Source of the DNA: Pelotomaculum schinkii
Lineage (GTDB): Bacteria; Bacillota; Desulfotomaculia; Desulfotomaculales; Pelotomaculaceae
DNA: 64,000 nt
Assembly: GCF_004369205.1 (NCBI RefSeq)
Contig: NZ_QFGA01000001.1
Coordinates: forward strand, 1,116,001 to 1,180,000
Direction: 5' to 3'
Shown: piece by piece, positions 1 to 61,306 of the stretch
Numbering within the stretch: position 1 is the stretch's first letter
How the letters are laid out: each line of letters begins with the position of its first letter
Translations under genes and position numbers: made by a program
The notes under the pieces: generated by a model
Databases searched by the model: none
Told to the model about the DNA's origin: nothing
The model's input: only the letters and a program-made list of their open reading frames with translations

Positions 1-461
1 GGCGTTGCTGTGCCAGGTGGAAAAAGCTTAACACTGCGCTTTTTGCGCGATTGAAATCGCGCCTGCATCAGAGATAGCAATTGAAAGTTATTTTTGTTCA
101 TGAACCCTGGATAAACCGTTACGCAACCTGCAAGCAGCATGCTCATTGCCCTAATTTATTGGTACAGGCCTAAAGTAATACAGCAATAACCACCTTGACG
201 ATAATAGAACAGTCAGGCAGCCAACTCTGCGGTTGAACCTGGCTGTTTTATTTTAATACCTGGTATTTCTCTTTACCTGAGTTTTTTTACGAACTATTAA
301 TAATATGCGTTATATCTAAATCATTTAAATAGGTGATAGGAAACCATGCAGCAATAAATAAATTAAATAACACTCATAAAGGGGTAAACATATTCCGGGA
401 CGAATAGTTTTTTAAATATATTATTTCTCCCCAAATCAATTATAAAGATGAGGTGTCAATA
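1..461. other. Intergenic region upstream of the first gene
   Basis: No gene was recognised here. Bases 47-75 hold a fragment of the dispersed REP-like repeat (a gcgcgattgaaatcgcgc palindrome). A terminator hairpin lies at 208-254. The rest (255-446) is AT-rich and probably carries the promoter of the first gene, but I could not choose a convincing -35/-10 pair. Confidence 0.5.
208..254 (+). terminator. Rho-independent terminator
   Basis: A 10-bp stem pairs AACAGTCAGG with CCTGGCTGTT (one T-G pair) and is followed by TTTATTTT. It probably ends a gene lying left of the window. Confidence 0.6.
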
Positions 462-1748
462 TTGGCAAATGATTACCGCCCCATGTGGGAATCTCTCGGG
501 CTCGACCTGGAGGCGCACGACCAACTGCTGCAGGTAATTCCGCCGGCTTTCGGGGAAGTTTATATGCAGCAGAAGAACCGGCCGGCGGAAATGGAGTATT
601 TTGATTTTGTGATTAGCGAAATCCACGGCCTGCGCATTCAGGAACTGCAGGAACACAAGGCACGTGGTGGCAAGGTAGTCGGCGCTTTTTGCATTTTTGT
701 CCCGGAGGAAATCGTCCGGGCCGCCGGCGGCATCTGCGTCGGACTGTGTTCCGGAGCCGAGATAGGTACCGCCCAGGCTGAAAAGGTGCTGCCCAGGAAC
801 ATCTGCCCCTTGATTAAGTCCTTCATGGGTTTCAAACTCGGTCACGTCTGTCCTTATTTTGAGTCCTGTGATATGGTCGTCGGCGAAACCACGTGCGACG
901 GCAAGAAAAAAGCTTTTGAAATCCTCAACGACTATGTGCCCGTGCATATGATGGAAACCCCTCAGATGAAAAGGGAAAAAGACAAAGCATTATGGCGCAG
1001 CGAGGTGCGGGACTTTGTAACCGAAATGGAACAGTTTACCGGGAACAATGTCACTTATGAATCCTTAAAAAGGGCCATTCAGGATGTGAACGGCAAGAGG
1101 AAGGTACTGGCACGCCTGGCAGAACTGCGCAAAAATATTCCTGCGCCCATCAGCGGCAAAGACAGCCTTTTGATTGAACAGATCGCTATGTACGACGACG
1201 TGGACAGGTTTACCGGACAGACCGCCAAACTCTGTGACGAACTCGAGGAACGGGTCCGCACAGGCGCCGGTGTGCATGAACCGGGGGCCCTGCGGATAAT
1301 TGTATCCGGCACTCCCATGGCCGTCCCCAACTGGAAGGTCCCCCATATCATCGAAAGCAGTGGAGCGGTTATTGTTGCCGAGGAGCTTTGCACAGGCCTG
1401 CGCTATTTTGAGAACACCGTAGCTGAAGACGGCCACGACCTGGAACAGCAGGTAGACGCCCTAGCCAAACGCTACCTCGATATCGACTGCGCCTGCTTTA
1501 CCCCTAACGCTGCGCGCACCGATAAACTGGTGCAACTAGCTGAAGAATATAAGGCTGACGGGATCATCCACTGCTCCCTGGCTTTCTGCGACCCTTATCT
1601 GGTCGAAGCAAACCGGGTTGAAAAAGTATTGAAAGAGCACAATATACCACTCTTGAGAATTGAAACGGACTATGGCCAGGAAGATTCGGGACAGCTAAAG
1701 ACAAGAATTGAAGCGTTCTTTGAAATGCTTGCCGCAAAAAAAGCCTGA
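462..1748 (+). CDS. 2-hydroxyacyl-CoA dehydratase family protein (double-cubane-type subunit 1)
   Basis: This is a member of the HgdB/BcrC/double-cubane-cluster (DCCP) family, about 428 residues. Conserved cysteines can be seen near residues 77, 92, 96, 115, 130, 136 and 145, including the family motifs KVLPRNICPLIKS and ETTCDGKKK. Family members carry Fe-S clusters that receive ATP-energised electrons from an HgdC/DCCP-R ATPase, and such an activator is encoded at 3390. Known relatives dehydrate 2-hydroxyacyl-CoAs, reduce benzoyl-CoA, or reduce small molecules at an [8Fe-9S] double cubane. The substrate here cannot be told from sequence. TTG at 462 is preferred over GTG at 453 because GAGGTG lies 7 nt upstream of the TTG. 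A paralogue follows at 2227 after a REP-containing gap. Confidence 0.88.
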   Translation: MANDYRPMWESLGLDLEAHDQLLQVIPPAFGEVYMQQKNRPAEMEYFDFVISEIHGLRIQELQEHKARGGKVVGAFCIFVPEEIVRAAGGICVGLCSGAEIGTAQAEKVLPRNICPLIKSFMGFKLGHVCPYFESCDMVVGETTCDGKKKAFEILNDYVPVHMMETPQMKREKDKALWRSEVRDFVTEMEQFTGNNVTYESLKRAIQDVNGKRKVLARLAELRKNIPAPISGKDSLLIEQIAMYDDVDRFTGQTAKLCDELEERVRTGAGVHEPGALRIIVSGTPMAVPNWKVPHIIESSGAVIVAEELCTGLRYFENTVAEDGHDLEQQVDALAKRYLDIDCACFTPNAARTDKLVQLAEEYKADGIIHCSLAFCDPYLVEANRVEKVLKEHNIPLLRIETDYGQEDSGQLKTRIEAFFEMLAAKKA

Positions 1749-2226
1749 TTGTCCCACCATCCCTGATAACGGCATTGTGGATTGGCCTTCAAATTCACAC
1801 ATGACCATTGAAACTACCTGAAAATGCAGGTGCGAATTCATTCGCACAAAAGTTACTGTAGATGCCCAAGTTCGGCGCTGACGCGCCGTGTGCGATTAAA
1901 ATCGCACCTACATCGCTGGTATTTTCATTATACGTGGCGCCGCTGACGGCACGGGCAACTACCTTGAATAGGAACTCGCTGACAAGCAGAAAATGGCCAC
2001 CTAACCTTTGAGTGGTTAATAGACCGGCCTGATGTTGCAGGCGCCAATTCATTGCGCCTGCAACATCAGGTAATTTTCTGTTGACCTGAATACATGAGGA
2101 TGCAAATAAACTATTTTTATTTCCCTGTTTATTACAATAAATATATTTTATTTATATGATAGAGGAATTTTATAATAATTGGGTGAATGTTACACTCAGT
2201 CTTTTTAACCTGAAAGGTGGGCGTCT
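1749..2226. repeat. REP-containing intergenic gap between the two dehydratase-like genes
   Basis: A complete REP/MITE-like module occupies about 1817-1930: a GTGCGAATTCATTCGCAC palindrome, a GGCGCTGACGCGCC palindrome and a GTGCGATTAAAATCGCAC palindrome. A second perfect hairpin around 2033-2071 pairs CCTGATGTTGCAGGCGC with its complement across AATTCATT. From 2100 onward the DNA is AT-rich and probably carries the promoter of the gene at 2227. Confidence 0.7.
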
Positions 2227-3384
2227 ATGCGACCCTCAATGATGAAAATTTTTGATAACCTGCGTGACCAGAACATCCTCGACCTTGAGCACGCCAAAAG
2301 GGACAACAAGAAGGTCGTGGGAATGTACTGCGCTTACTCTCCCCAGGAGCTCGCGCTGGCAGCTGGAGCCATTCCGGTGTCTTTGTGCGGGACGAAGAAC
2401 GAGCCGGTGGCGGCCGCTGAAAAAGTGCTGCCCCGCAACCTGTGCCCCCTGATCAAGTCCAGCTTTGGCTTTGCCATAACCGATACCTGCCCCTATTTTC
2501 GTTTTTCAGATTTTCTTGTCGCCGACACGACCTGCGACGGCAAGAAAAAAATGTTTGAAATACTGAGCAGTATTAAACCCATGCATGTCCTGCACCTGCC
2601 GCAGGGAACAGACCGTCCGGGCGCCCTGGGATGGTGGCTGGAAGAAATACGCGTCCTTAAAGACAAGTTGGAGGAAAACCTGGGGGCAACAATCGATGAG
2701 GACGGTCTGCGTGCAGCCATCAAGCTGACCAACAGAGAGCGGCAGGTGATGAGAAAACTGCATGAGATGAATAGACTTGACCCTGCCCCGCTGTCTGGAG
2801 TAGATCTGCTCACCGCTACCTGGTTGAGGAGTTTCAGCGTTGATAAGGCAGAAGGAATTGAACTAGTCGAACAACTTATAGAAGAGATCCAGGAAATAGC
2901 GGAGAAGGGACTCTCCCCCTTCCGACCGGGGACACCCCGTATCCTTCTCACCGGCTGCCCGGTGGGCAGCGGCTCGGAGAAGGTATTAAAACTCGTGGAG
3001 GAATGCGGCGGCAGCGTAGTTTGCCTGGAAAACTGCAGCGGGATCAAAACCCAGGTGTATTTGATCGATGAGGACGAAAGCAAGGACCCGCTGGAAGCTA
3101 TTGCCGAAAGATACCTGCAGATCCCCTGTTCATGCATGTCCCCCAATCCCGGCAGGCTCGAACTGATCAGTAAATTAATTGATGAGTACCGGGTTGACGG
3201 GGTTGTTGACCTTACCTGGCAAGCCTGCCACACCTATAACGTCGAAGCTGAATTGGTGCGCCAACTGATCAAAGATAAGTTCGGACTGCCCTACATCCAG
3301 CTGGAAACCGATTACTCAACCTCGGATGTAGAACAGCTGAAGACCCGGGTCGCTGCATTTATCGAAATGATGGACAGGAGTTGA
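2227..3384 (+). CDS. Double-cubane-cluster-type 2-hydroxyacyl-CoA dehydratase family protein (subunit 2)
   Basis: At 385 residues this has the length expected of the compact DCCP subfamily. Conserved cysteines are at residues 35, 54, 73, 88 and 103, within VVGMYCAYSP, NLCPLIKSSFGF, CPYF and DTTCDGKKKMF. DCCPs are known as homodimers with an [8Fe-9S] double cubane that use ATP hydrolysed by a partner ATPase to reduce small substrates. The partner gene starts 5 bp after this one ends, so the two are clearly co-transcribed. An AAAGGTGG site precedes the ATG. With the paralogue at 462, this locus could encode either a heterodimer or two homodimeric reductases that share an activator. Confidence 0.9.
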   Translation: MRPSMMKIFDNLRDQNILDLEHAKRDNKKVVGMYCAYSPQELALAAGAIPVSLCGTKNEPVAAAEKVLPRNLCPLIKSSFGFAITDTCPYFRFSDFLVADTTCDGKKKMFEILSSIKPMHVLHLPQGTDRPGALGWWLEEIRVLKDKLEENLGATIDEDGLRAAIKLTNRERQVMRKLHEMNRLDPAPLSGVDLLTATWLRSFSVDKAEGIELVEQLIEEIQEIAEKGLSPFRPGTPRILLTGCPVGSGSEKVLKLVEECGGSVVCLENCSGIKTQVYLIDEDESKDPLEAIAERYLQIPCSCMSPNPGRLELISKLIDEYRVDGVVDLTWQACHTYNVEAELVRQLIKDKFGLPYIQLETDYSTSDVEQLKTRVAAFIEMMDRS

Positions 3385-3389
3385 ACAAC

Positions 3390-4160
3390 ATGATTACAGT
3401 GGGCATAGATGTCGGGTCCATTACCACCAAAGCAGTATTATTAAACGGTACGACCTGGCAGAGCCTGCTGCTGCCGACCGGCTGCAGCCCCCGGGATGCC
3501 GGTAAGAGCGTATTCGAGCAAATTCTTGACAGGGCCTCTCTATCTCCTGCAGACGTCGACTGTGTTGTCGGGACTGGCTACGGCAGGATTTCACTCCCCT
3601 TCATCGATAAGGCGATCACGGAAATCACCTGCCATGCCAGGGGCGCACTTCACCTGGTAAACGGTACCGACATGGTAATCGATATAGGCGGCCAGGACAG
3701 CAAGGTAATCATGATTGATGAGCAGGGCCGTGTTATCAATTTCGCTATGAACGACAAATGCGCCGCCGGTACCGGAAGATTCTTACAGGTTATGGCGGCT
3801 GTGCTGGGCGCCGATGTGAGCGATTTGGCGGACCTGGCGCGGGGAGCCGAGCCGGTACAGATCAGCAGTATGTGCACGGTTTTCGCCGAGTCGGAAGTGG
3901 TCAGCCTGCTGGCCCAGGGTGTGTCCAAGGAACGCATCATCTCCGGCATCCACCGTTCTGTTGCCGGTCGTGTGGCCTCTATGGCCGGAAGGCTGGGCCG
4001 GGGCAGGCGGATTACCTTCACCGGGGGCGTCGCCAGAAACGGCGGGGTAAGAGAGTTTCTTGCCCGGGAACTGGGCCAGGAGGTCACTGTGGCGCCCGAA
4101 CCCCAGATGGCCGGAGCGATCGGCGCCGCACTCCTGGCCAGGGATAGATGCAAACACTAG
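3390..4160 (+). CDS. ASKHA-type ATPase activator of 2-hydroxyacyl-CoA dehydratase/DCCP (HgdC/BcrD/DCCP-R family)
   Basis: This is a 256-residue BadF/BadG/BcrA/BcrD-type ATPase. The N-terminal phosphate-1 motif GIDVGSITTKAV, the DIGGQDSK phosphate-2 motif and a C-terminal FTGGVARN adenosine-type motif are intact. Two cysteines, Cys124 (NDKCAAGTG) and Cys162 (SSMCTVF), are the ligands of the [4Fe-4S] cluster bridging the homodimer in this family. ATP hydrolysis lowers the potential of that cluster and injects an electron into the partner protein. An ATG at 3390 with AGGAG 10 nt upstream is preferred over the TTG at 3381 that overlaps the previous stop. Confidence 0.9.
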   Translation: MITVGIDVGSITTKAVLLNGTTWQSLLLPTGCSPRDAGKSVFEQILDRASLSPADVDCVVGTGYGRISLPFIDKAITEITCHARGALHLVNGTDMVIDIGGQDSKVIMIDEQGRVINFAMNDKCAAGTGRFLQVMAAVLGADVSDLADLARGAEPVQISSMCTVFAESEVVSLLAQGVSKERIISGIHRSVAGRVASMAGRLGRGRRITFTGGVARNGGVREFLARELGQEVTVAPEPQMAGAIGAALLARDRCKH

Positions 4161-4251
4161 CAAAGCCAACGCTTTTCCAAAACCCGCATACCAGCTTTAT
4201 TTTTCGGATACATCGCTTGTGGTAATTATTCATTTTCAAGGAGTAATTTAC

Positions 4252-4506
4252 ATGTCAAAAACACTGGTGGAGTTCATTAATACCTGCTCCTGCTGCGATG
4301 AACATATTCAAACAATTAAAAACACGGCCCAAAAACACGGTGACCAAGTGGAAGTGAAGATTTACTACGCCGGTAAGGATGTTGATTATCTCAAAAAATA
4401 TGGGATGGTAACCAAAGGCACGATGATTATTGACGGCAGAAAAAAAATTGATAACCTTTCTAAAACAATTATTGAAAAAGCTATTGAAGACGCGCTGAGG
4501 AGCTGA
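4252..4506 (+). CDS. saoT: Thioredoxin-like small protein, SaoT-like
   Basis: This 84-residue protein has a thioredoxin/glutaredoxin-like fold signature: an N-terminal strand (KTLVEFIN), then the cysteine motif TCSCCDEH (Cys12, Cys14, Cys15), and a conserved TKGTMIIDG segment before the last strand. In the family I recall as SaoT, one of these positions may be selenocysteine; here all are Cys codons. It starts behind AAGGAG and lies 5 bp upstream of the permease. The role inferred is thiol-disulfide chemistry or soft-metal handover in the cytoplasm. The sao name rests on motif and neighbourhood together, not on a search. Confidence 0.75.
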   Translation: MSKTLVEFINTCSCCDEHIQTIKNTAQKHGDQVEVKIYYAGKDVDYLKKYGMVTKGTMIIDGRKKIDNLSKTIIEKAIEDALRS

Positions 4507-4511
4507 ATTTT

Positions 4512-5600
4512 TTGATTTTGGAGCTACTGCAAAAGGTTATTCTGGCATCTTTTGACATCCTCAACAGCGCTTCAGTATGGCTGGTCATAAGTTTTATTCT
4601 GGCAGGCCTGATGCACAACCTCTTAAGCCCGGACCGGCTGCACCGGACGCTGGGAAACAGGAAGATATCGTCTCTGGTCAAGGCAACACTGTCAGGCATG
4701 CTCCTGCCCATCTGCAGTTGCGGTGTTATTCCCCTGGGCGTGGGGCTATATTATTCCGGAGCCTACCTGGGGCCCACCCTGGCTTTTATGACGGCTACGC
4801 CCATTATTAATCCGGCAGCCATACTCCTGGCCTATGGTTTTTTAGGGCCGCAGATAGCCACTATTTATCTCGCAACCGGGTTTGTGGCGCCAATTTTGAT
4901 TGGTATGGCCGGCAACGCGCTTGCCGGGCGGGAGCTCCATGCTCCAGGCATGGAAAATCCCGTAGAGATGGTCAACCTGGAGTCCGGTGCGGAAACCAGC
5001 CTGGCACAGAAACTGAGTTCAGGCCTGCATTGGGGTTTTTTTGACATGGGTGTATCCGTCAGTAAATACGTGTGTATCGGCATGCTGCTGGCCGGATTGA
5101 TGATCACGCTGGTACCGGCGTCCTTTATCCAGCAGTACCTGGGCAGCCCCGGCATGATTTCCATAGCCGGCATCGCCGTCCTGGGAGCGATTATGTACGT
5201 CTGCGCGGTGGGACACATTCCATTTATCGCTGCGCTTATAGCTAGCGGAGCGGCGCCTGGCCTGGCGATTACATTTTTGATGACCGGCGCCGCCACCAAT
5301 CTACCCGAATTAATCAGTATGTATAAAATGATCGGCAGGCGAACCGTAGTCATTTATATTACTGTCTTGACTCTCTCTTCATTATTTGTTGGCTACCTGA
5401 CCAATCTATACCTGCTGCCGGGCTTTGTGCCTTTCTTTGACCTGACCAGCACCCGTCAAACTATCGGTCTGGCCAACAGCTTGATTTTCTCTGCTCCCGG
5501 TCCTCTTCGCTATCTATGTTCAGCAATCATCACAGCTCTAGGCCTTCATGCTTTGTGGCCGGGCATCAAAAGAGCGCTGCTTAAAGAAAGGGTCGCATGA
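4512..5600 (+). CDS. saoE: ArsP/DUF318-type permease, SaoE-like efflux transporter
   Basis: This 362-residue polytopic membrane protein has about eight hydrophobic segments. The first half carries the permease-family signature ICSCGVIPLGVGLYYSGAYL followed by ATPIINPAA, and the second half repeats the theme with GHIPFIAALIASG and TGAATNLPELI. This resembles the PF03773 permeases that include ArsP, known to export trivalent organoarsenicals, so a soft-metal or organometal export role is plausible. Translation starts at TTG 4512 behind GAGGAGCTGA and the gene overlaps the next by 4 bp (ATGA), which implies translational coupling. Confidence 0.82.
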   Translation: MILELLQKVILASFDILNSASVWLVISFILAGLMHNLLSPDRLHRTLGNRKISSLVKATLSGMLLPICSCGVIPLGVGLYYSGAYLGPTLAFMTATPIINPAAILLAYGFLGPQIATIYLATGFVAPILIGMAGNALAGRELHAPGMENPVEMVNLESGAETSLAQKLSSGLHWGFFDMGVSVSKYVCIGMLLAGLMITLVPASFIQQYLGSPGMISIAGIAVLGAIMYVCAVGHIPFIAALIASGAAPGLAITFLMTGAATNLPELISMYKMIGRRTVVIYITVLTLSSLFVGYLTNLYLLPGFVPFFDLTSTRQTIGLANSLIFSAPGPLRYLCSAIITALGLHALWPGIKRALLKERVA

Positions 5601-6079
5601 TGCCCCGTCGTAAGCTGCTCCAGAGATTTTTTGCTTGTGTAGTTTTGGTACTGCTGGCCGGCGGCTGCGCAGCAGGGAACGGCAAGATGCCTCCTCCTGC
5701 CGCAGGTGATGAAGCCTTCCGGGGAGGCCCTATGCTTGAATATTTTAAGGCCGCCCACCCCGGTAAGGAAGTCATAATTTTAGACAAGGCCGATCTGAAT
5801 AGCGACAACACTGAGGATATGGTGGTGATTTTCAGAGAGAGCAAGGAAACGAACTCGATGCTGGTCGTACTTGATTTATCAGGTTCATACCAGTGCACCA
5901 ATAAGGTACCGGCGCCGGTGTCCAACCAGGTCATCCAGTTTAAGGACATCGACCAGAAACCACCTTTGGAGTTTATCGTCCAGGGCATGAAAGGCGCCAA
6001 TGTCGGTTATGCAATTTATCGCGTGGAAGGAACAAAACTGGAGGACTTATTTGGAGAGGGGATGAAAGACTGCTGCTAG
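5597..6079 (+). CDS. saoC: Small lipoprotein ending in Cys-Cys-COOH, SaoC-like
   Basis: This 160-residue protein has a lysine/arginine-rich start, a hydrophobic stretch and a lipobox-like LAGGC, suggesting a lipoprotein anchored outside the membrane. Its last two residues are Cys159-Cys160, followed directly by TAG. That is the hallmark of the family I recall as 'Cys-Cys-COOH (seleno)protein SaoC'. A C-terminal vicinal thiol pair is the kind of site mercuric reductase uses to take up metal. The body contains a calcium-site-like DKADLNSDNTED segment. The start overlaps the permease stop, so the two are co-expressed. Confidence 0.8.
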   Translation: MMPRRKLLQRFFACVVLVLLAGGCAAGNGKMPPPAAGDEAFRGGPMLEYFKAAHPGKEVIILDKADLNSDNTEDMVVIFRESKETNSMLVVLDLSGSYQCTNKVPAPVSNQVIQFKDIDQKPPLEFIVQGMKGANVGYAIYRVEGTKLEDLFGEGMKDCC

Positions 6080-6099
6080 ACATTTTAGACTGAAAACAC

Positions 6100-6195
6100 G
6101 GGGAGAAATGGGGATGGTCCCCCGCGGGCTTCAAACCCATTTGTCTGCCTGTCATGCAGGTGGGAGTCCGGTTCGAATCCGACTTCTCCCCACCA
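6100..6195 (+). tRNA. selC: tRNA-Sec (anticodon UCA)
   Basis: The gene is 96 nt including the encoded CCA. It has an 8-bp acceptor stem (GGGGAGAA with TTCTCCCC), a D arm (GGGGA/TCCCC), the anticodon loop CTTCAAA with anticodon TCA at 6131-6133, a long variable arm of about 7 bp at 6145-6163, and the T loop TTCGAAT. The 8-bp acceptor stem, long extra arm and UCA anticodon are specific to selenocysteine tRNA. Oddities are discriminator A at 6192 where G is usual, a C-A mismatch in the anticodon stem (6125/6139) and one bulged C in the T stem. It sits between two cysteine-rich cluster genes. selA, selB and selD are not in the window. Confidence 0.93.
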
Positions 6196-6231
6196 AAACC
6201 ATCTCAAGTATTACTTTCAAGGAGAGAAATT

Positions 6232-7368
6232 ATGGATAACAAGATCAGAACTGTCATGCTGCTTATTGTGTCAATCAGCCTGCTTACGCTTTTGACCGGC
6301 TGCGGCGGGGGCGACAAGCCTGCAGACCAAAACAAAGCCACCACGAATATCGCAATACCGGAAAAAGACAAGGACTACGTGGTGCAGCTCGGTTATTACG
6401 ACTGCGATCACATGACCGGCGCCTGCATCGCCAAAGATGCGGGGATATATGATGAACTGGGTCTTAAAGTTAACGTGCTCGGGAATGCCAAGGTTCCCGA
6501 AGCGATGGCGGCGGGCCAGATGGATGTGGGGTACGTAGGCAATTCCCGTATGATGCGCGCATTTTTACAGGGCTCTCCCATTGTCGTCGGCGCCAACAAC
6601 CACATCGGCGGTTCCCACTATCTGGTTGCCTCCAATGATATCAAGGAACCAAAAGACTTATTGGGCAAGAAACTGGCTATCGGGACAGCCCCAGAGAAAA
6701 ATAACCCTTCGTGGATTGTAATGGCTGAAAGGCTAGGACTCCCTATCGAGGGCGCGAACTACGAAGTGCTAAACATGGCCGACAAGGATGAGTACTTCGC
6801 CCTGAAGGCAGGTAAACTGGATGGGTATGCCGCCTGCGACCCCTGGGGTTCGATGGCTGAATTCGAAAAAACCGGCCACGTCCTTGCCGCTATGGATAAA
6901 TTGCCAAGCGGAGAGTGGGGCGAGTGCTGCGCCTTCAACTTGAATAAGAATTTTGCCACGGAACATCCGGAGTTGGCCAAGTTGATGGTCCTGTCCCATA
7001 CCAAAGCAATAGAACATATGTATCTTAAGCCTGTTCGCTCAGCCGAAATTTTTGCCGAAAATTACAAGGTGCCCATGGAAGTCGCACTGATGACCATGTG
7101 GAAGAAAACGGTTGCTGAAGGCAGGACTATCACCTGGAAAATTGACCTGAATAACTGGCAAAGACAAATAGATATGGAACTTGGGTTTGGAACACTTGAT
7201 AAGGCGCCAAACGTGAATGAGTTTATTCAGCCCCAATACCTGAACGAAAGCGGGGCCGATGACTTTGACACCTTTATCAAGGAAAAAGTTGACCCGGTCT
7301 TCCCGGTAGGCATGCCTTACGAAGAGTGGAAAGCCAAAGCCTATAATCTGGAAGGTAAAACTGCATAA
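6232..7368 (+). CDS. ABC transporter substrate-binding lipoprotein (NitT/TauT type), sao-associated
   Basis: This 378-residue NMT1/SsuA-type periplasmic-binding-fold protein has a signal peptide with the lipobox LTGC (Cys24). Unusually for this fold it carries several cysteines near the ligand cleft, YYDCDHMTGAC near the first strand and a vicinal pair in WGECCAFN, so a thiophilic ligand is likely. It lies 36 bp downstream of the tRNA-Sec 3' end. A longer frame starting at 6154 would run inside the tRNA and was set aside; the ATG at 6232 has GGAGAG 7 nt upstream. It is one of two binding proteins that probably feed the permease/ATPase pair at 8278-9902. The cluster may call this family SaoX; I am not certain of that name. 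Confidence 0.82.
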   Translation: MDNKIRTVMLLIVSISLLTLLTGCGGGDKPADQNKATTNIAIPEKDKDYVVQLGYYDCDHMTGACIAKDAGIYDELGLKVNVLGNAKVPEAMAAGQMDVGYVGNSRMMRAFLQGSPIVVGANNHIGGSHYLVASNDIKEPKDLLGKKLAIGTAPEKNNPSWIVMAERLGLPIEGANYEVLNMADKDEYFALKAGKLDGYAACDPWGSMAEFEKTGHVLAAMDKLPSGEWGECCAFNLNKNFATEHPELAKLMVLSHTKAIEHMYLKPVRSAEIFAENYKVPMEVALMTMWKKTVAEGRTITWKIDLNNWQRQIDMELGFGTLDKAPNVNEFIQPQYLNESGADDFDTFIKEKVDPVFPVGMPYEEWKAKAYNLEGKTA

Positions 7369-7374
7369 GATAAC

Positions 7375-7490
7375 CTGAAAATGCAGTTGCGAATTCATTC
7401 GCACAAATGCAACAGTGGCTGCCACAAGTGCGGCGCTGGCGCGCCGTGTGCGATTGAAATCGCACCTACATCGGCTGGTATTTTCATTCT
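7375..7490 (+). repeat. REP/MITE-like module
   Basis: This intergenic module has the same architecture as 1817-1930: ctgaaaatgca, a GCGAATTCATTCGC palindrome, a GGCGCTGGCGCGCC palindrome and a GTGCGATTGAAATCGCAC palindrome, then tattttcat. It lies inside the transporter operon between the two binding-protein genes. Confidence 0.8.
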
Positions 7491-7528
7491 CTGCCAAGCC
7501 GCATCAGAGGCATGGATGTCTAAAAATA

Positions 7529-8332
7529 ATGAAAAAATTATTTGTCATAGCAGCGGCAGCTGTCCTGCTGCTGACAGCCTTCTTGTACCCTCAGCGGGGA
7601 GGAGACAACGGGAAGGTTAAAATAGGTGCGCCTGACGACACAGGCGGCATGATCATACACTACCTGGTGCACGAAAAGGGCTACGGGGATGCTGAGGTGC
7701 AGCATGATTTTGAACTGTACCCGGTGAAGGATTGCTGCTCCAGCACCTCCCAGTGGGCCTTAAGCAGCAATCAGTATGACCTTGCCGTCATGTGCCCTGA
7801 CGCGGCTGAAAGCCTCCTGGAAAAAGACGGCCGGTTTGAAATCGTCAGCCCTTGTCTGATGAATTCGGACATCGTGGTGGTTAAACCCGGGCTTACTCCA
7901 CAAAAAATCGGGATTGCCCAGAACCGCACGCACCAGACACAAATTGTGGCTGATATTTTCGGCCAGGGGTGCGCCACAGCGCTTATGCTGCCGGCAGCCA
8001 TTCCCTACGCCTATGAGAAAAACGCGGTTGACGGCGTGGTCGTGGATGCGCTGAGGGGATTTACCATGACCGGAGATAAACTGCCTGCGACTGCCGTGGA
8101 AGCAGACCACATCACCTACGTACTGGTTGTTAACAATAGCTTTAAAGATGACCCGCGTTATCAGGAATTTCTTGACTTGTTTCAGCAGTCGGTTGAAGAA
8201 CTAAATAACCCGGATATCCTGATGGAGGAGATCGGGAGATACAAAAATATCGACTTTTCACGCGAGGAGGTGAACCAATGGAACCGGTTGGGGATAAAGC
8301 ACGTATTTACAATTCCAGAAATGCGCGGTTAA
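7529..8332 (+). CDS. saoB: ABC transporter substrate-binding protein with Cys-Cys motif, SaoB-like
   Basis: The mature-type start MKKLFVIAAAAVLLL gives an N-terminal signal or anchor and a 267-residue protein. The longer frame from 7415 is translated repeat sequence and was not used. The protein has the NMT1-like binding fold and a vicinal Cys69-Cys70 pair in PVKDCCSST, with a further cysteine in AVMCPDAA. In the family I recall as 'substrate-binding (seleno)protein SaoB', the CC position may be selenocysteine; here both are Cys. The 3' end overlaps the permease start by 55 bp. Together with the protein at 6232 it suggests capture of a thiol-reactive ligand outside the cell. Confidence 0.78.
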   Translation: MKKLFVIAAAAVLLLTAFLYPQRGGDNGKVKIGAPDDTGGMIIHYLVHEKGYGDAEVQHDFELYPVKDCCSSTSQWALSSNQYDLAVMCPDAAESLLEKDGRFEIVSPCLMNSDIVVVKPGLTPQKIGIAQNRTHQTQIVADIFGQGCATALMLPAAIPYAYEKNAVDGVVVDALRGFTMTGDKLPATAVEADHITYVLVVNNSFKDDPRYQEFLDLFQQSVEELNNPDILMEEIGRYKNIDFSREEVNQWNRLGIKHVFTIPEMRG

Positions 8333-9108
8333 TACGCGAAAAAGTCATGGGCTCATTTGGCCAAAAACAGATATTGTACCGCTTGATTACTATTGCGGCG
8401 GTTTTCGGTATCTGGCAGTTGGCCGCCAACCACTACCACAGTGAATTTATGATGCCATCTCCTTTGAAAACGATGATTACCTTCACCTCTGTCGTAAATG
8501 ACGCAGACGTCATCAAAAATCTCCTGCTTACTTTAAGGAGGGTTCTGACAGGATTTGCTTATGCTCTGATGATCGGGATCCCGCTGGGCTTTCTGATGGG
8601 CTACTCAAAAACGGCCATGCAGTTGTTTGACCCTTTGATCGATTCACTCAGGCAGATCCCGATCATGGCCTGGGTGCCGCTGACCATCGTCTGGTTTGGC
8701 CTCGGCGACGGTCCCACCGTATTTTTAATTGCTTTTACCGGAACCTTCCCCATCGTAATGAATACTATTGCCGGCGTGCAAAACATCTCCAAGGATTATT
8801 ACAATGCTGCCCGCAGCATGGGCGCCAAGCCCTGGAGCATATTCGCCCACATTATCGTTCCCGCTTCCATGCCCGATATCCTGATTGGGGGCAGAGTCGC
8901 CATCGGGCTGGGCTGGATGTCGGTCATATGAGCGGAATTCATAGCGACGAGTGCCGGTTTCGGCTACTCCATGGTGGAAGCGCAGACAAGAATGCAGACC
9001 GACAAACTGGTGGCCCTTATGATCCTGGCCGCCCTTATCGGCTACTCTATTGACCGGATTCTTCAATTATTTAACAGGTCTCTAACAAAATGGAGGTTTG
9101 TTCAGTAA
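8278..9108 (+). CDS. saoP: ABC transporter permease with in-frame UGA (putative selenoprotein), SaoP-like
   Basis: This is a NitT/TauT-type inner-membrane permease with about six transmembrane segments. The frame opens at ATG 8278 (AGGAGGTG 8 nt upstream), runs 217 codons, meets TGA at 8929-8931, and continues in the same frame for 58 codons to TAA 9106-9108. The downstream part (AEFIATSAGFGYSM, then a last hydrophobic helix) is the conserved C-terminal third of the permease, so the TGA is internal. The EAA-loop region (ARSMGAKPWSIF) precedes it. The TGA falls in the transmembrane helix after that loop, in the context SVI-U-AEFI. A hairpin beginning 17 nt downstream resembles a bacterial SECIS, and a tRNA-Sec gene lies 2.8 kb upstream. 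Alternatives are a recent nonsense mutation or a sequencing error. Confidence 0.8.
8949..8969 (+). promoter_or_regulatory. SECIS-like hairpin downstream of the permease UGA
   Basis: GAGTGCCG pairs with CGGC-ACTC (one bulged T at 8965) around the loop GTTT at 8957-8960. The loop starts with G and lies about 25 nt after the UGA, inside the 16-37 nt range usual for bacterial SECIS elements. The GGU at the loop edge recalls the SelB-contacting GGU of E. coli fdhF. Confidence 0.55.
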
Positions 9109-9902
9109 TGGAATTAATAATTGAAAATGTCTCCAAGGTTTTTACTAATGACAATAAGGTTCATACAGTTCTCAGGGACTTGAGTTTTTCTGTGCAGGAA
9201 GGCCAGTTTGTGACCCTCCTGGGCCCTTCCGGCTGCGGAAAAACTACCCTGCTGACAATAATGGCCGGGTTCCAAGCGGCCTCCGGCGGGCGGATCCTGC
9301 TAAACGGCAGCCAGGTAACGAAACCTGGTCCGGACAGGGGGTTTGTTTTCCAGAACTACGCGCTCTTTCCCTGGATGACGGTAAGGGACAATATCCTCTA
9401 TCCGATGAAACAGCAAAAAGTGCCCGCCAAGGAACAGGAACAGCGCTTACAGCGATTACTGGCAATAGCTCAGCTGGAAGGCAAGGAAAAGCTTTACCCG
9501 CACCAGCTTTCAGGGGGCATGAAACAAAGGACTGCTTTCATCCGGGCGCTGGCTGGCAGTCCGGAAGTGCTCTTGATGGACGAACCACTGGGTGCGGTTG
9601 ATTTTCAAATGCGGCAAAACCTTCAAGAAGAGCTGGAGTCTTTGTGGCTAACGGCTAAAACGACCGTCATCATGGTGACGCATGATGTCGATGAAGCCAT
9701 CTATCTGAGTGATAGAGTGATCGTGATGTCTGCTCTTGAAGGAAAAGTATTGGAAGACTTGTCCGTCAAACTGCCCCGCCCGCGGAACCGGAAGGACAGG
9801 GAATATATCAAGACCAAAGAACACCTTATGGATCTCCTCAAGATTGCTATCAACAAGCGGCCGGAGTCAACGGAAACCCAAAGAAAGCTATGCCTCGCGT
9901 AA
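9108..9902 (+). CDS. saoA: ABC transporter ATP-binding protein, SaoA-like
   Basis: A 264-residue ABC ATPase of the SsuB/TauB/NitT group. It has the Walker A GPSGCGKTT near residue 39, Q-loop FQNYALFPW, signature LSGGMKQR, Walker B VLLMDEP and the H-loop VTHDVDEA. ATG 9108 overlaps the permease stop (TAATG) and has TGGAGGT about 11 nt upstream, so it is preferred over the in-frame ATG at 9090. It should energise the permease at 8278 with the binding proteins at 6232 and 7529. The stop-start coupling with TAA 9106-9108 itself supports read-through of the permease UGA, since ribosomes must reach that point to be coupled. Confidence 0.9.
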   Translation: MELIIENVSKVFTNDNKVHTVLRDLSFSVQEGQFVTLLGPSGCGKTTLLTIMAGFQAASGGRILLNGSQVTKPGPDRGFVFQNYALFPWMTVRDNILYPMKQQKVPAKEQEQRLQRLLAIAQLEGKEKLYPHQLSGGMKQRTAFIRALAGSPEVLLMDEPLGAVDFQMRQNLQEELESLWLTAKTTVIMVTHDVDEAIYLSDRVIVMSALEGKVLEDLSVKLPRPRNRKDREYIKTKEHLMDLLKIAINKRPESTETQRKLCLA

Positions 9903-10000
9903 GTAAGAAACTATTGTCTTGATGCCTTTGAAGCTCTAATCGTTGCAAAGATGCTTTTCCAATCGAATAATACTTTTAAAAAAACAAGGAGGTTTTATCA

Positions 10001-10333
10001 ATGAAAGTAGCGTATATTTTTTCTTCAACCACCTCGCAGAAGATCCTGGACAACATGATTATCCCTCAGTTGGAAGGGGATACGCACGGAGCTGAGGTGG
10101 CCGGCATGTTTTTCTTCATGGACAACACCTATTTTCTTTTAGACGGTTCCGAATTGGGCGAAAGGCTGCGTCAAATACAGGAAAAGAACGGCATGCTCCT
10201 AATGGCTTGCGACAAGTGCGCCATTGAACGCGGTATTGAAAACAAACTGATCTCCGGCGCTAAAATAGGTTGTTTCCCTCAGCTTTACGCGGCCCTGGGA
10301 GGCGCGGGCATTGACCAGGTCATAACCCTATAA
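10001..10333 (+). CDS. saoD: DsrE-like protein, SaoD-like
   Basis: A 110-residue soluble protein with a DsrE/DsrF-like fold pattern: an N-terminal VAYIFSSTTS strand, a central GMFFFMDNTYFL segment and a conserved redox motif CDKC (Cys70, Cys73) near the position of the sulfur-carrying cysteine of DsrE proteins. It follows the ATPase gene by 98 bp behind AAGGAGGTTT and precedes a terminator, so it closes the cluster. Known DsrE proteins carry persulfides between enzymes; a thiol or metal relay for the cluster is inferred. This family contains known selenoproteins, but no in-frame UGA occurs here. Confidence 0.8.
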   Translation: MKVAYIFSSTTSQKILDNMIIPQLEGDTHGAEVAGMFFFMDNTYFLLDGSELGERLRQIQEKNGMLLMACDKCAIERGIENKLISGAKIGCFPQLYAALGGAGIDQVITL

Positions 10334-61006: not shown

Positions 61007-61190
61007 ATGAATGCCCCCAAATAAAGTTGTTTTAACCACTACATTGAAAATACGGGTGCGAATTAGATTCGCAAAATATAAAAATTATTTGATTTTCATG
61101 AACATTATGGTTAAGATTAAAGTTAATGGATAATTATTTCCTGACAGTTTTTATCAGTATATTTAATTTCCCATACAATTTGTATATTAT

Positions 61191-61275
61191 GCGGGGAGCT
61201 GAAGCTATTCGGCTGAGAAAGAACTTGGTTCTGACCCACAGACCTGATCTGGGTAATGCCAGCGTAGGGACAAGC
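61191..61275 (+). ncRNA. TPP riboswitch (THI element)
   Basis: The two conserved TPP-aptamer halves are present: GCTGAGA followed by the GACCC-type segment, then ACCTGATCTGGGTAATGCCA and GCGTAGGGA. A terminator stem GGCCTTTTGCCTGC/GCAGGCAGAAGGCC at 61307-61330, followed by TAATTTAATTT, is the likely expression platform. It controls the thiamine-related operon starting at 61358. Confidence 0.93.
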
Positions 61276-61306
61276 TAGATCGTGCTTTAAGTGAGCGCGT
61301 TCGGGC

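What the first reader, a model, noticed from the sequence alone, without database searches (positions are those of the whole stretch)
8278..9108. ABC permease read through an in-frame UGA: probable selenoprotein
TGA 8929-8931 divides an otherwise continuous permease frame; the next 58 codons encode the conserved C-terminal part and end at TAA 9106-9108, one base-overlap with the ATPase start. A hairpin with a G-starting GTTT loop about 25 nt past the UGA has bacterial SECIS geometry, and a selC gene is 2.8 kb upstream. Homologous permeases in the window have Met or Ile near this helix position, so the site tolerates variation; Cys in orthologues would be the strongest support. A Sec inside a membrane helix of a transporter would be unusual and suggests direct contact with the transported metal.
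Basis: partly seen in the sequence, partly recalled or inferred. Interest (0 to 1): 0.92.

Follow-up and report, generated by a model that had tools for sequence, protein, structure and literature searches.

The report
Selenocysteine-containing SaoP transporter permease
A bacterial transporter gene appears to read a stop codon as the rare amino acid selenocysteine, a case already catalogued for this family, and beside it lies an odd second stop-reading tRNA gene that deserves study.

Summary
In detail: TGA 8929-8931 interrupts one continuous permease frame, 8278-9108. The protein is SaoP (NCBIfam NF040733, 435 bits, cut-off 295), permease of the SAO ("Sec-assisted organometallic") operon saoT-E-C-X-B-P-A-D. 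Of 62 aligned SaoP copies, 28 carry TGA and 34 a Cys codon at this column, none anything else. Thirty-five paralogous permeases have Ala, Val or Gly. An 8-pair hairpin with a bulged U and a G-starting loop lies 25 nt after the UGA in 26 of 28 UGA copies, against 1 of 34 Cys copies. SelA, SelB, SelD and a normal G73 tRNA-Sec are elsewhere in the genome. Sec at residue 218 is very well supported, but a 2026 review already lists SaoP as a selenoprotein, citing Haft & Gwadz 2023. Metal contact is unproven.

One correction: the nearby "selC" (6100-6195) is not the genome's normal tRNA-Sec. It has A73, a bulged T stem and a UCA anticodon. It belongs to a selC*-type tRNA family whose other members read Cys codons (GCA, U73). 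The UCA form sits at sao loci in 8 of 9 copies read. Whether it reads UGA, and with which amino acid, is open; that is the novel part.

The parts
4240..4506 (+). saoT, thioredoxin-like protein, Cys form (CSCC); homology starts near 4240 although the mechanical ORF opens at 4060
   Evidence: NF040730, 139.1 bits, cut-off 65; reach of homology
4512..5600 (+). saoE, ArsP-type efflux permease
   Evidence: NF040736, 537.5 bits, cut-off 325; PF03773
5597..6079 (+). saoC, Cys-Cys-COOH protein (ends DCC)
   Evidence: NF040734, 178.8 bits, cut-off 80
6100..6195 (+). selC*-like tRNA gene: UCA anticodon, A73 with encoded CCA, 8-bp acceptor stem, T stem with one bulged base; not the canonical tRNA-Sec
   Evidence: ARAGORN; RF01852 44.3 bits, below gathering; alignments and 3' ends; missing as one clean block in L048/G002
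6232..7368 (+). saoX, substrate-binding protein
   Evidence: NF040735, 528.1 bits, cut-off 300
7529..8332 (+). saoB, substrate-binding protein, Cys form (DCCSS)
   Evidence: NF040727, 339.6 bits, cut-off 140
8278..9108 (+). saoP, ABC permease, 276 aa when UGA is read as Sec (residue 218)
   Evidence: NF040733, 435 bits, cut-off 295; column test
8929..8931 (+). Sec UGA codon
   Evidence: TGA in 28 and Cys codon in 34 of 62 copies
8949..8969 (+). SECIS-type hairpin: 8 pairs, one bulged U, loop GUUU, 25 nt after the UGA
9108..9902 (+). saoA, ABC ATPase
   Evidence: NF040729, 442.2 bits, cut-off 360
10001..10333 (+). saoD, DsrE-related protein
   Evidence: NF040732, 192.8 bits, cut-off 169

Best explanation
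The gene is saoP, the membrane subunit of the SAO-type ABC importer. UGA 8929-8931 is read as selenocysteine 218 by SelB and the genome's normal Sec-tRNA, directed by the hairpin at 8949-8969. Sec, or Cys in relatives, takes the place of the small residue (Ala or Val) usual in related permeases, near one end of the long helix that follows the EAA motif. There it is most likely a soft-metal or organometal ligand, or a redox selenol/thiol, in the transport path or its gate, acting with the Cys-bearing partners SaoX, SaoB, SaoC, SaoT and SaoE. Shown by comparison: readthrough to one protein, the Sec/Cys-only column, the conserved hairpin, the presence of the Sec machinery. Inferred: that the residue faces the path, and what is transported.
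For: One in-frame TGA in all 17 SaoP copies of 16 of the 113 class genomes. 62 copies: 28 TGA, 34 Cys, 0 other. 35 paralogues Ala/Val/Gly. The state changes at least 4 times on a quick tree, 3 on well-supported branches alone. Hairpin in 26 of 28 against 1 of 34; in 16 chosen UGA sequences (15 distinct) 120 of 120 cells pair, with the outer pair G-C, A-U or C-G. SelB 23 of 23, SelA 21 of 23, canonical tRNA-Sec 23 of 23 genomes with SaoP, G73 in all 23. SelD in G000, itself with an in-frame TGA near its start. Other operon members also carry TGA in place of Cys: saoB in 6, saoT in 5, saoX in 1 of 57 loci, all in loci whose saoP has TGA. TGA still ends 7 of 34 non-overlapping ORFs of 240 aa or more. 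AlphaFold model pLDDT 83.7, nearest solved folds CmpB and NrtB; residue 218 aligns with Ala220 of NrtB.
Against: No protein data. The hairpin alone is not exceptional, is weak in two UGA copies (L066, L122), and one Cys copy (L057) also has all 8 pairs. Query pattern WMSVICAE could favour Cys codons at this column; the 23 genomes found by HMM over the cut-off show the same two states (18 TGA, 5 Cys). SaoL, the MerB-like lyase, is not found in G000, so an organometal substrate is uncertain here. In the window saoT, saoC, saoX and saoB have no in-frame TGA, so saoP is the only operon member with Sec.
Confidence: 0.93

Rival explanations
1. The UGA is decoded, at least part of the time, by the selC*-like UCA tRNA of the same operon, giving Cys, Leu or another residue at 218: a second reading of a Sec codon.
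For: The UCA tRNA lies 2.7 kb upstream in the operon; anticodon loop CUUCAAA in 9 of 9 UCA copies read; 28 pairs hold in 98.0% of cells; in four UCA copies compared with the window the tRNA is 86-97% identical while the near flanks are 36-70%; at sao loci in 8 of 9.
Against: Only 6 of 16 class genomes with UGA saoP have a UCA copy among the matches read (one weak match in G048 was not read), and a same-genus relative (G002) with UGA saoP lacks it cleanly, so it is not needed. A73 fits neither Cys (U73) nor Ser (G73) identity (passages of PMC9976931). CCA is not encoded in 5 of 9. It persists in G004, G014 and G019, where no SaoP was found.
Confidence: 0.05
2. The UGA is a true stop: a truncated pseudogene, a sequencing error, or a 217-residue product.
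For: ORF calling ends there.
Against: The same TGA at the same codon in 28 copies, from Bacillota and Thermodesulfobacteriota among those named, with conserved protein after it, and Cys elsewhere.
Confidence: 0.01
3. UGA is read as Trp (code 4) or by general suppression.
For: The frame is open under such a code.
Against: TGA ends 7 of 34 long ORFs; the column is Cys or TGA, never Trp; Sec machinery present.
Confidence: 0.01

Closest known systems
SaoP, NCBIfam NF040733 'ABC_perm_U' of the SAO system (Haft & Gwadz 2023, J Bacteriol 205:e0025922; not held, known here from NCBIfam and from passages of review PMC13188914)
   Same: Sequence family over cut-off, operon partners, Sec in the permease
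   Different: No difference found in the protein. The window adds a selC*-like UCA tRNA between saoC and saoX; whether the 2023 paper mentions it could not be read
NrtB and CmpB, permeases of cyanobacterial nitrate and bicarbonate importers (8w9m, 9u9z)
   Same: Fold and permease architecture
   Different: 25-29% identity in the fold alignments; Ala at the Sec column
selC* tRNA-Cys (Mukai et al. 2017, not held; passages of review PMC7609411)
   Same: tRNA-Sec-like shape, 8-bp acceptor, bulged T stem; GCA or UCA anticodon; reported in Firmicutes
   Different: Window copy has A73, not U73; as I read it the T stem keeps 5 pairs beside the bulge, the review gives 4; sao linkage
Canonical bacterial tRNA-Sec
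   Same: 8-bp acceptor, long variable arm, UCA
   Different: A73 for G73, bulged T stem, only 44.3 bits; the genome has a normal one elsewhere (68.9 bits)

Membership tests
SaoP (NF040733) | Score over the curated cut-off | tested here: met
   435 bits against 295
SaoP (NF040733) | Sec or Cys in the permease where related permeases have a small residue | tested here: met
   62 of 62 Sec/Cys; 35 of 35 paralogues Ala/Val/Gly, one further paralogue in the window Met
SAO system | Operon with SaoT, E, C, X, B, P, A, D | tested here: met
   All eight over cut-off at 4240-10333
SAO system | MerB-like lyase SaoL | tested here: not met
   No match in G000; 5 of 18 SaoP genomes have it, so I treat it as an optional part
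SAO system | Handles organometals | not testable with these tools
   Needs biochemistry
Selenoprotein (bacterial) | bSECIS: loop 3-9 nt, G in its first two bases, 16-37 nt after UGA, stem of 4-16 bp, -7.5 kcal/mol or lower (figure legend of PMC13188914) | tested here: met
   Window: loop 4 nt, G first, 25 nt, 8 bp, -10.0; 25 of 27 distinct UGA sequences pass, but so do 12 of 32 distinct Cys ones
Selenoprotein (bacterial) | SelA, SelB, SelC, SelD in the genome | tested here: met
Selenoprotein (bacterial) | Sec present in the protein | not testable with these tools
   Needs mass spectrometry or 75Se
tRNA-Sec (for 6100-6195) | G73, held to be essential (PMC5330540, section 11 read) | tested here: not met
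   A73
tRNA-Sec (for 6100-6195) | RF01852 gathering score | tested here: not met
   44.3 against 47; near copies in G001, G005 and G015 score 47.0, 49.4 and 47.8, so the score alone does not decide
selC* tRNA-Cys (for 6100-6195) | tRNA-Sec-like shape with bulged T stem | tested here: met
selC* tRNA-Cys (for 6100-6195) | U73 discriminator (Cys identity) | tested here: not met
   A73 in 8, G73 in 1 of 9 UCA copies; U73 in 21 of 21 GCA copies read

The most novel reading that the evidence does not exclude
A tRNA-Cys-like selC* gene settled inside the sao operon (still GCA/U73 in G012), then changed anticodon to UCA and lost its Cys discriminator in the sister genera. It now works as an operon-borne UGA-reading tRNA, delivered by SelB, that fills the Sec codon of saoP with a second amino acid when selenium or Sec-tRNA is short, or that tunes readthrough by competing for SelB.
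Probability: 0.15. Interest if true: 0.88.

Novelty: already known. Interest (0 to 1): 0.5.

Why it matters
The Sec in SaoP is an unusual case of selenocysteine inside a membrane helix of an ABC importer, and the exact Sec/Cys choice at one residue makes its role directly testable by mutation. The finding given to me is already catalogued, so its own novelty is small. The unexpected gain is the UCA tRNA in the same operon: if it decodes UGA, one codon would have two dedicated tRNAs in one cell, a testable link between selenium supply and protein chemistry.

Tried and rejected
The window-wide Rfam scan gave one match at gathering score, a TPP riboswitch, and no SECIS or tRNA; a permissive scan of 8850-9110 gave only two snoRNA families at E 0.062 and 3.3: no support either way. 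Folding 72 nt after the UGA gives another minimum fold, z = -0.31; I did not rest on it. 'selC is 2.8 kb upstream' as support: rejected, since that tRNA is not canonical. A second CysRS to charge the selC*-like tRNA: not found; one cysS match over the cut-off in 17 of 18 genomes, and in G002 two neighbouring pieces below it. A conserved neighbour of the GCA-type tRNAs: none visible by eye in 8 GCA loci (no family search made). The sao-linked UCA tRNA elsewhere: in the 57 genome contigs sao loci the model R1 matches only L049, L050 and L075 (some loci are cut short of the place). L203 gave a weak match (33.7 bits) to a second tRNA-Sec-like piece with G73 in G020. A paper search for the NrtB transport path gave nothing useful.

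Controls that weaken single hits: the tRNA-Sec family RF01852 is over its cut-off in 5 of 14 control genomes and rings in all 14, so I rely on anticodon, G73 and scores of 65-77 bits for the canonical copies; SelB rings in 11 of 14 controls, over the cut-off in 2.

Of the 68 loci (L105-L115) match only part of the query weakly and were not used. In one search only the 30 matches that came with loci were read. The 17th class copy of saoP (G020:C119) was counted but its column not read. The first hairpin alignment had three rows out of register and was replaced. One search used 16 of the 28 UGA copies, chosen by me for variety, without the two weak ones (L066, L122).

Full report
OBSERVATION. 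The frame 8278-9108 holds a single TGA at 8929-8931; 58 codons follow to TAA 9106-9108, which shares a base with the start of the ATPase gene. Read with Sec, the protein has 276 residues and matches NCBIfam NF040733 (ABC_perm_U, SaoP) at 435 bits, cut-off 295. Neighbours are SaoE, SaoC, SaoX, SaoB, SaoA, SaoD and SaoT. SaoL was not found in this genome and is found in 5 of 18 SaoP genomes searched, so I treat it as optional.

COLUMN TEST. In the class (113 genomes searched), 16 genomes have SaoP over cut-off, 17 copies, each with exactly one TGA inside. In 398 genomes drawn from the phylum, 9 have it over cut-off, four with one TGA and five with none (two of the nine are also, so 23 genomes in all). 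A protein-guided scan of the genome-contig collection gave 68 loci, of which 57 (L048-L104) hold SaoP. Aligned with the window and 12 loci, the column of residue 218 is TGA in 31 and a Cys codon in 39 of 70 rows. After removing 8 repeats it is 28 TGA and 34 Cys of 62. A quick tree needs at least 4 changes between the two states, 3 on well-supported branches alone (21 of 57 inner branches are open). Permeases outside the family, 35 read, have Ala 23, Val 11, Gly 1; the one elsewhere in the window has Met. Sec or Cys and nothing else inside the family, and neither in the 36 read outside it, is the strongest evidence for a functional selenol/thiol. One of six patterns (WMSVICAE) covers the column and may favour Cys codons; the 23 HMM-found genomes show the same two states.

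SECIS. The 21-nt element GAGUGCCGGUUUCGGCUACUC forms 8 pairs with one bulged U and loop GUUU, 25 nt after the UGA. All 8 pairs form in 26 of 28 UGA copies (exceptions L066, L122) and 1 of 34 Cys copies (L057). In 20,000 synonymous versions of the window peptide, 90 form all 8. In 27 distinct UGA sequences the codons are nearly fixed (AGT 25, GCC 26, TAC 25) while Cys copies vary. In 16 chosen UGA sequences (15 distinct) every cell pairs, and the outer pair is G-C, A-U or C-G (change on both sides at one pair, as many in 53 of 500 shuffles). Against: a free hairpin search is far less telling (154 of 1500 synonymous versions reach -10.0; 12 of 32 distinct Cys sequences pass -7.5), so the evidence is comparative, not energetic.

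MACHINERY. SelB is over cut-off in 23 of 23 and SelA in 21 of 23 SaoP genomes (the misses are G017, 64% complete, and G289, a Cys-type genome). SelD is 2.4 kb before the window and itself has an in-frame TGA. TGA remains an ordinary stop (7 of 34 long ORFs). A canonical-type tRNA-Sec with UCA and G73 is in 23 of 23 genomes, in the window's own at C1:569016-569107.

STRUCTURE. The AlphaFold model (34 sequences, pLDDT 83.7) puts residue 218 near the end of a helix spanning 185-223, after the EAA region (the name EAA motif is recalled). Nearest solved folds are CmpB and NrtB; the sequence alignment sets Sec218 on Ala220 of NrtB and Ala222 of CmpB. That it lines the path is inference: no coordinates were examined.

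KNOWN? Review PMC13188914 (start of abstract and passages seen) lists SaoP NF040733 with SaoB, SaoC, SaoX, SaoT and SaoL as selenoproteins, citing Haft & Gwadz 2023, and names the operon SAO, Sec-assisted organometallic. That paper is not held. So the selenoprotein is already known and the window is one more member.

THE SECOND tRNA. The tRNA at 6100-6195 has UCA but A73 and a T stem with 6 bases opposite 5. A covariance model from five copies matches 74 of 113 class genomes at E 1e-4 or better (weaker matches may be other tRNAs). Of the 30 matches that came with loci, 21 have anticodon GCA, U73 and encoded CCA (G106 in a variant loop), and 9 have UCA with A73 (8) or G73 (1), CCA encoded in 4 of the 9. 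All 9 UCA copies are in the window's bacterial family (code f1). Eight of the 9 lie at sao loci: between saoC and saoX in G000, G001, G005, G015 and G021; beside saoC at a contig end in G019; between fragments of saoC and saoX in G014; next to half a saoD in G004. G018 is the exception: its sao operon is on another contig. G012 has the GCA/U73 form at the same place in the operon. Same-genus G002 lacks exactly the tRNA. Compared with the window, four UCA copies (G001, G005, G015, G021) keep 86-97% identity in the tRNA while the near flanks drop to 36-70%. In the 9 UCA copies pairs hold in 98.0% of cells; three pairs change on both sides, mean 1.5 in shuffles and as many in 53 of 500 (the alignment was fitted to the structure): conserved, with modest covariation. 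This fits the selC* tRNA-Cys family described in PMC7609411 (passages; part 1 of section 4), which includes UCA forms; but U73, its Cys identity element, is lost. Bacterial Leu identity uses A73 and a large variable arm, Ser G73, Cys U73 (passages of PMC9976931). No second complete cysS was found. Searches for tRNA and sao terms (listings only, partly capped) showed no paper joining this tRNA to the sao operon, and the review has no such passage for the terms asked; but the two key papers are not held, so I do not claim it is unreported.

HOW IT PROBABLY WORKS. Shown by comparison: UGA read as one residue, Sec or Cys only, with a dedicated hairpin. Inferred: SelB delivers Sec-tRNA; Sec218 acts as a soft ligand or redox group in import of a metal or organometal captured by SaoX/SaoB, with SaoE as efflux partner. 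Open: the substrate, and what the UCA tRNA does. It could be a second UGA reader, a SelB competitor, an RNA-processing mark within the operon transcript (RNase P cut), or a decaying copy; the conservation speaks against decay, the missing CCA in some copies and the loss of U73 for it.

Noticed in passing
6100-6195: UCA, A73 selC*-like tRNA between saoC and saoX; GCA/U73 relatives occur in other families of the class, and the UCA form sits at sao loci in 8 of the 9 copies read.
   Followed up: partly
453-4160: Two double-cubane-cluster reductase genes and an acyl-CoA-dehydratase-type activase directly upstream of the sao operon. A similar reductase and activase also stand upstream of saoT in relatives L187, L188, L189, L191 and L195-L198, not in L185, L186 or L190: a low-potential reductase may belong to the system.
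   Followed up: partly
G000:C1:1112651-1113571 (2.4 kb before the window; L278): selD with an in-frame TGA near its start (FSGU), so SelD is itself probably a selenoprotein.
   Followed up: partly
L235, L236: Decayed sao operons (half a saoD; fragments of saoC and saoX) that keep a well-conserved UCA tRNA.
   Followed up: partly
L057: Cys-type saoP that still forms all 8 pairs of the SECIS-type hairpin; possibly a recent Sec-to-Cys change.
   Followed up: no
genomes G013, G016, G017, G020: More than one SelB match over the family cut-off per genome; in G020 one lies on the same contig as a saoP.
   Followed up: no
7529-8332 and 8278: saoB overlaps the start of saoP by 55 bases.
   Followed up: no
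61182-61287: TPP riboswitch, 66.7 bits.
   Followed up: no
L245: A YeeE/YedE-like transporter gene (named by eye, no search) starts 26 bases after a GCA-type selC*-like tRNA.
   Followed up: no
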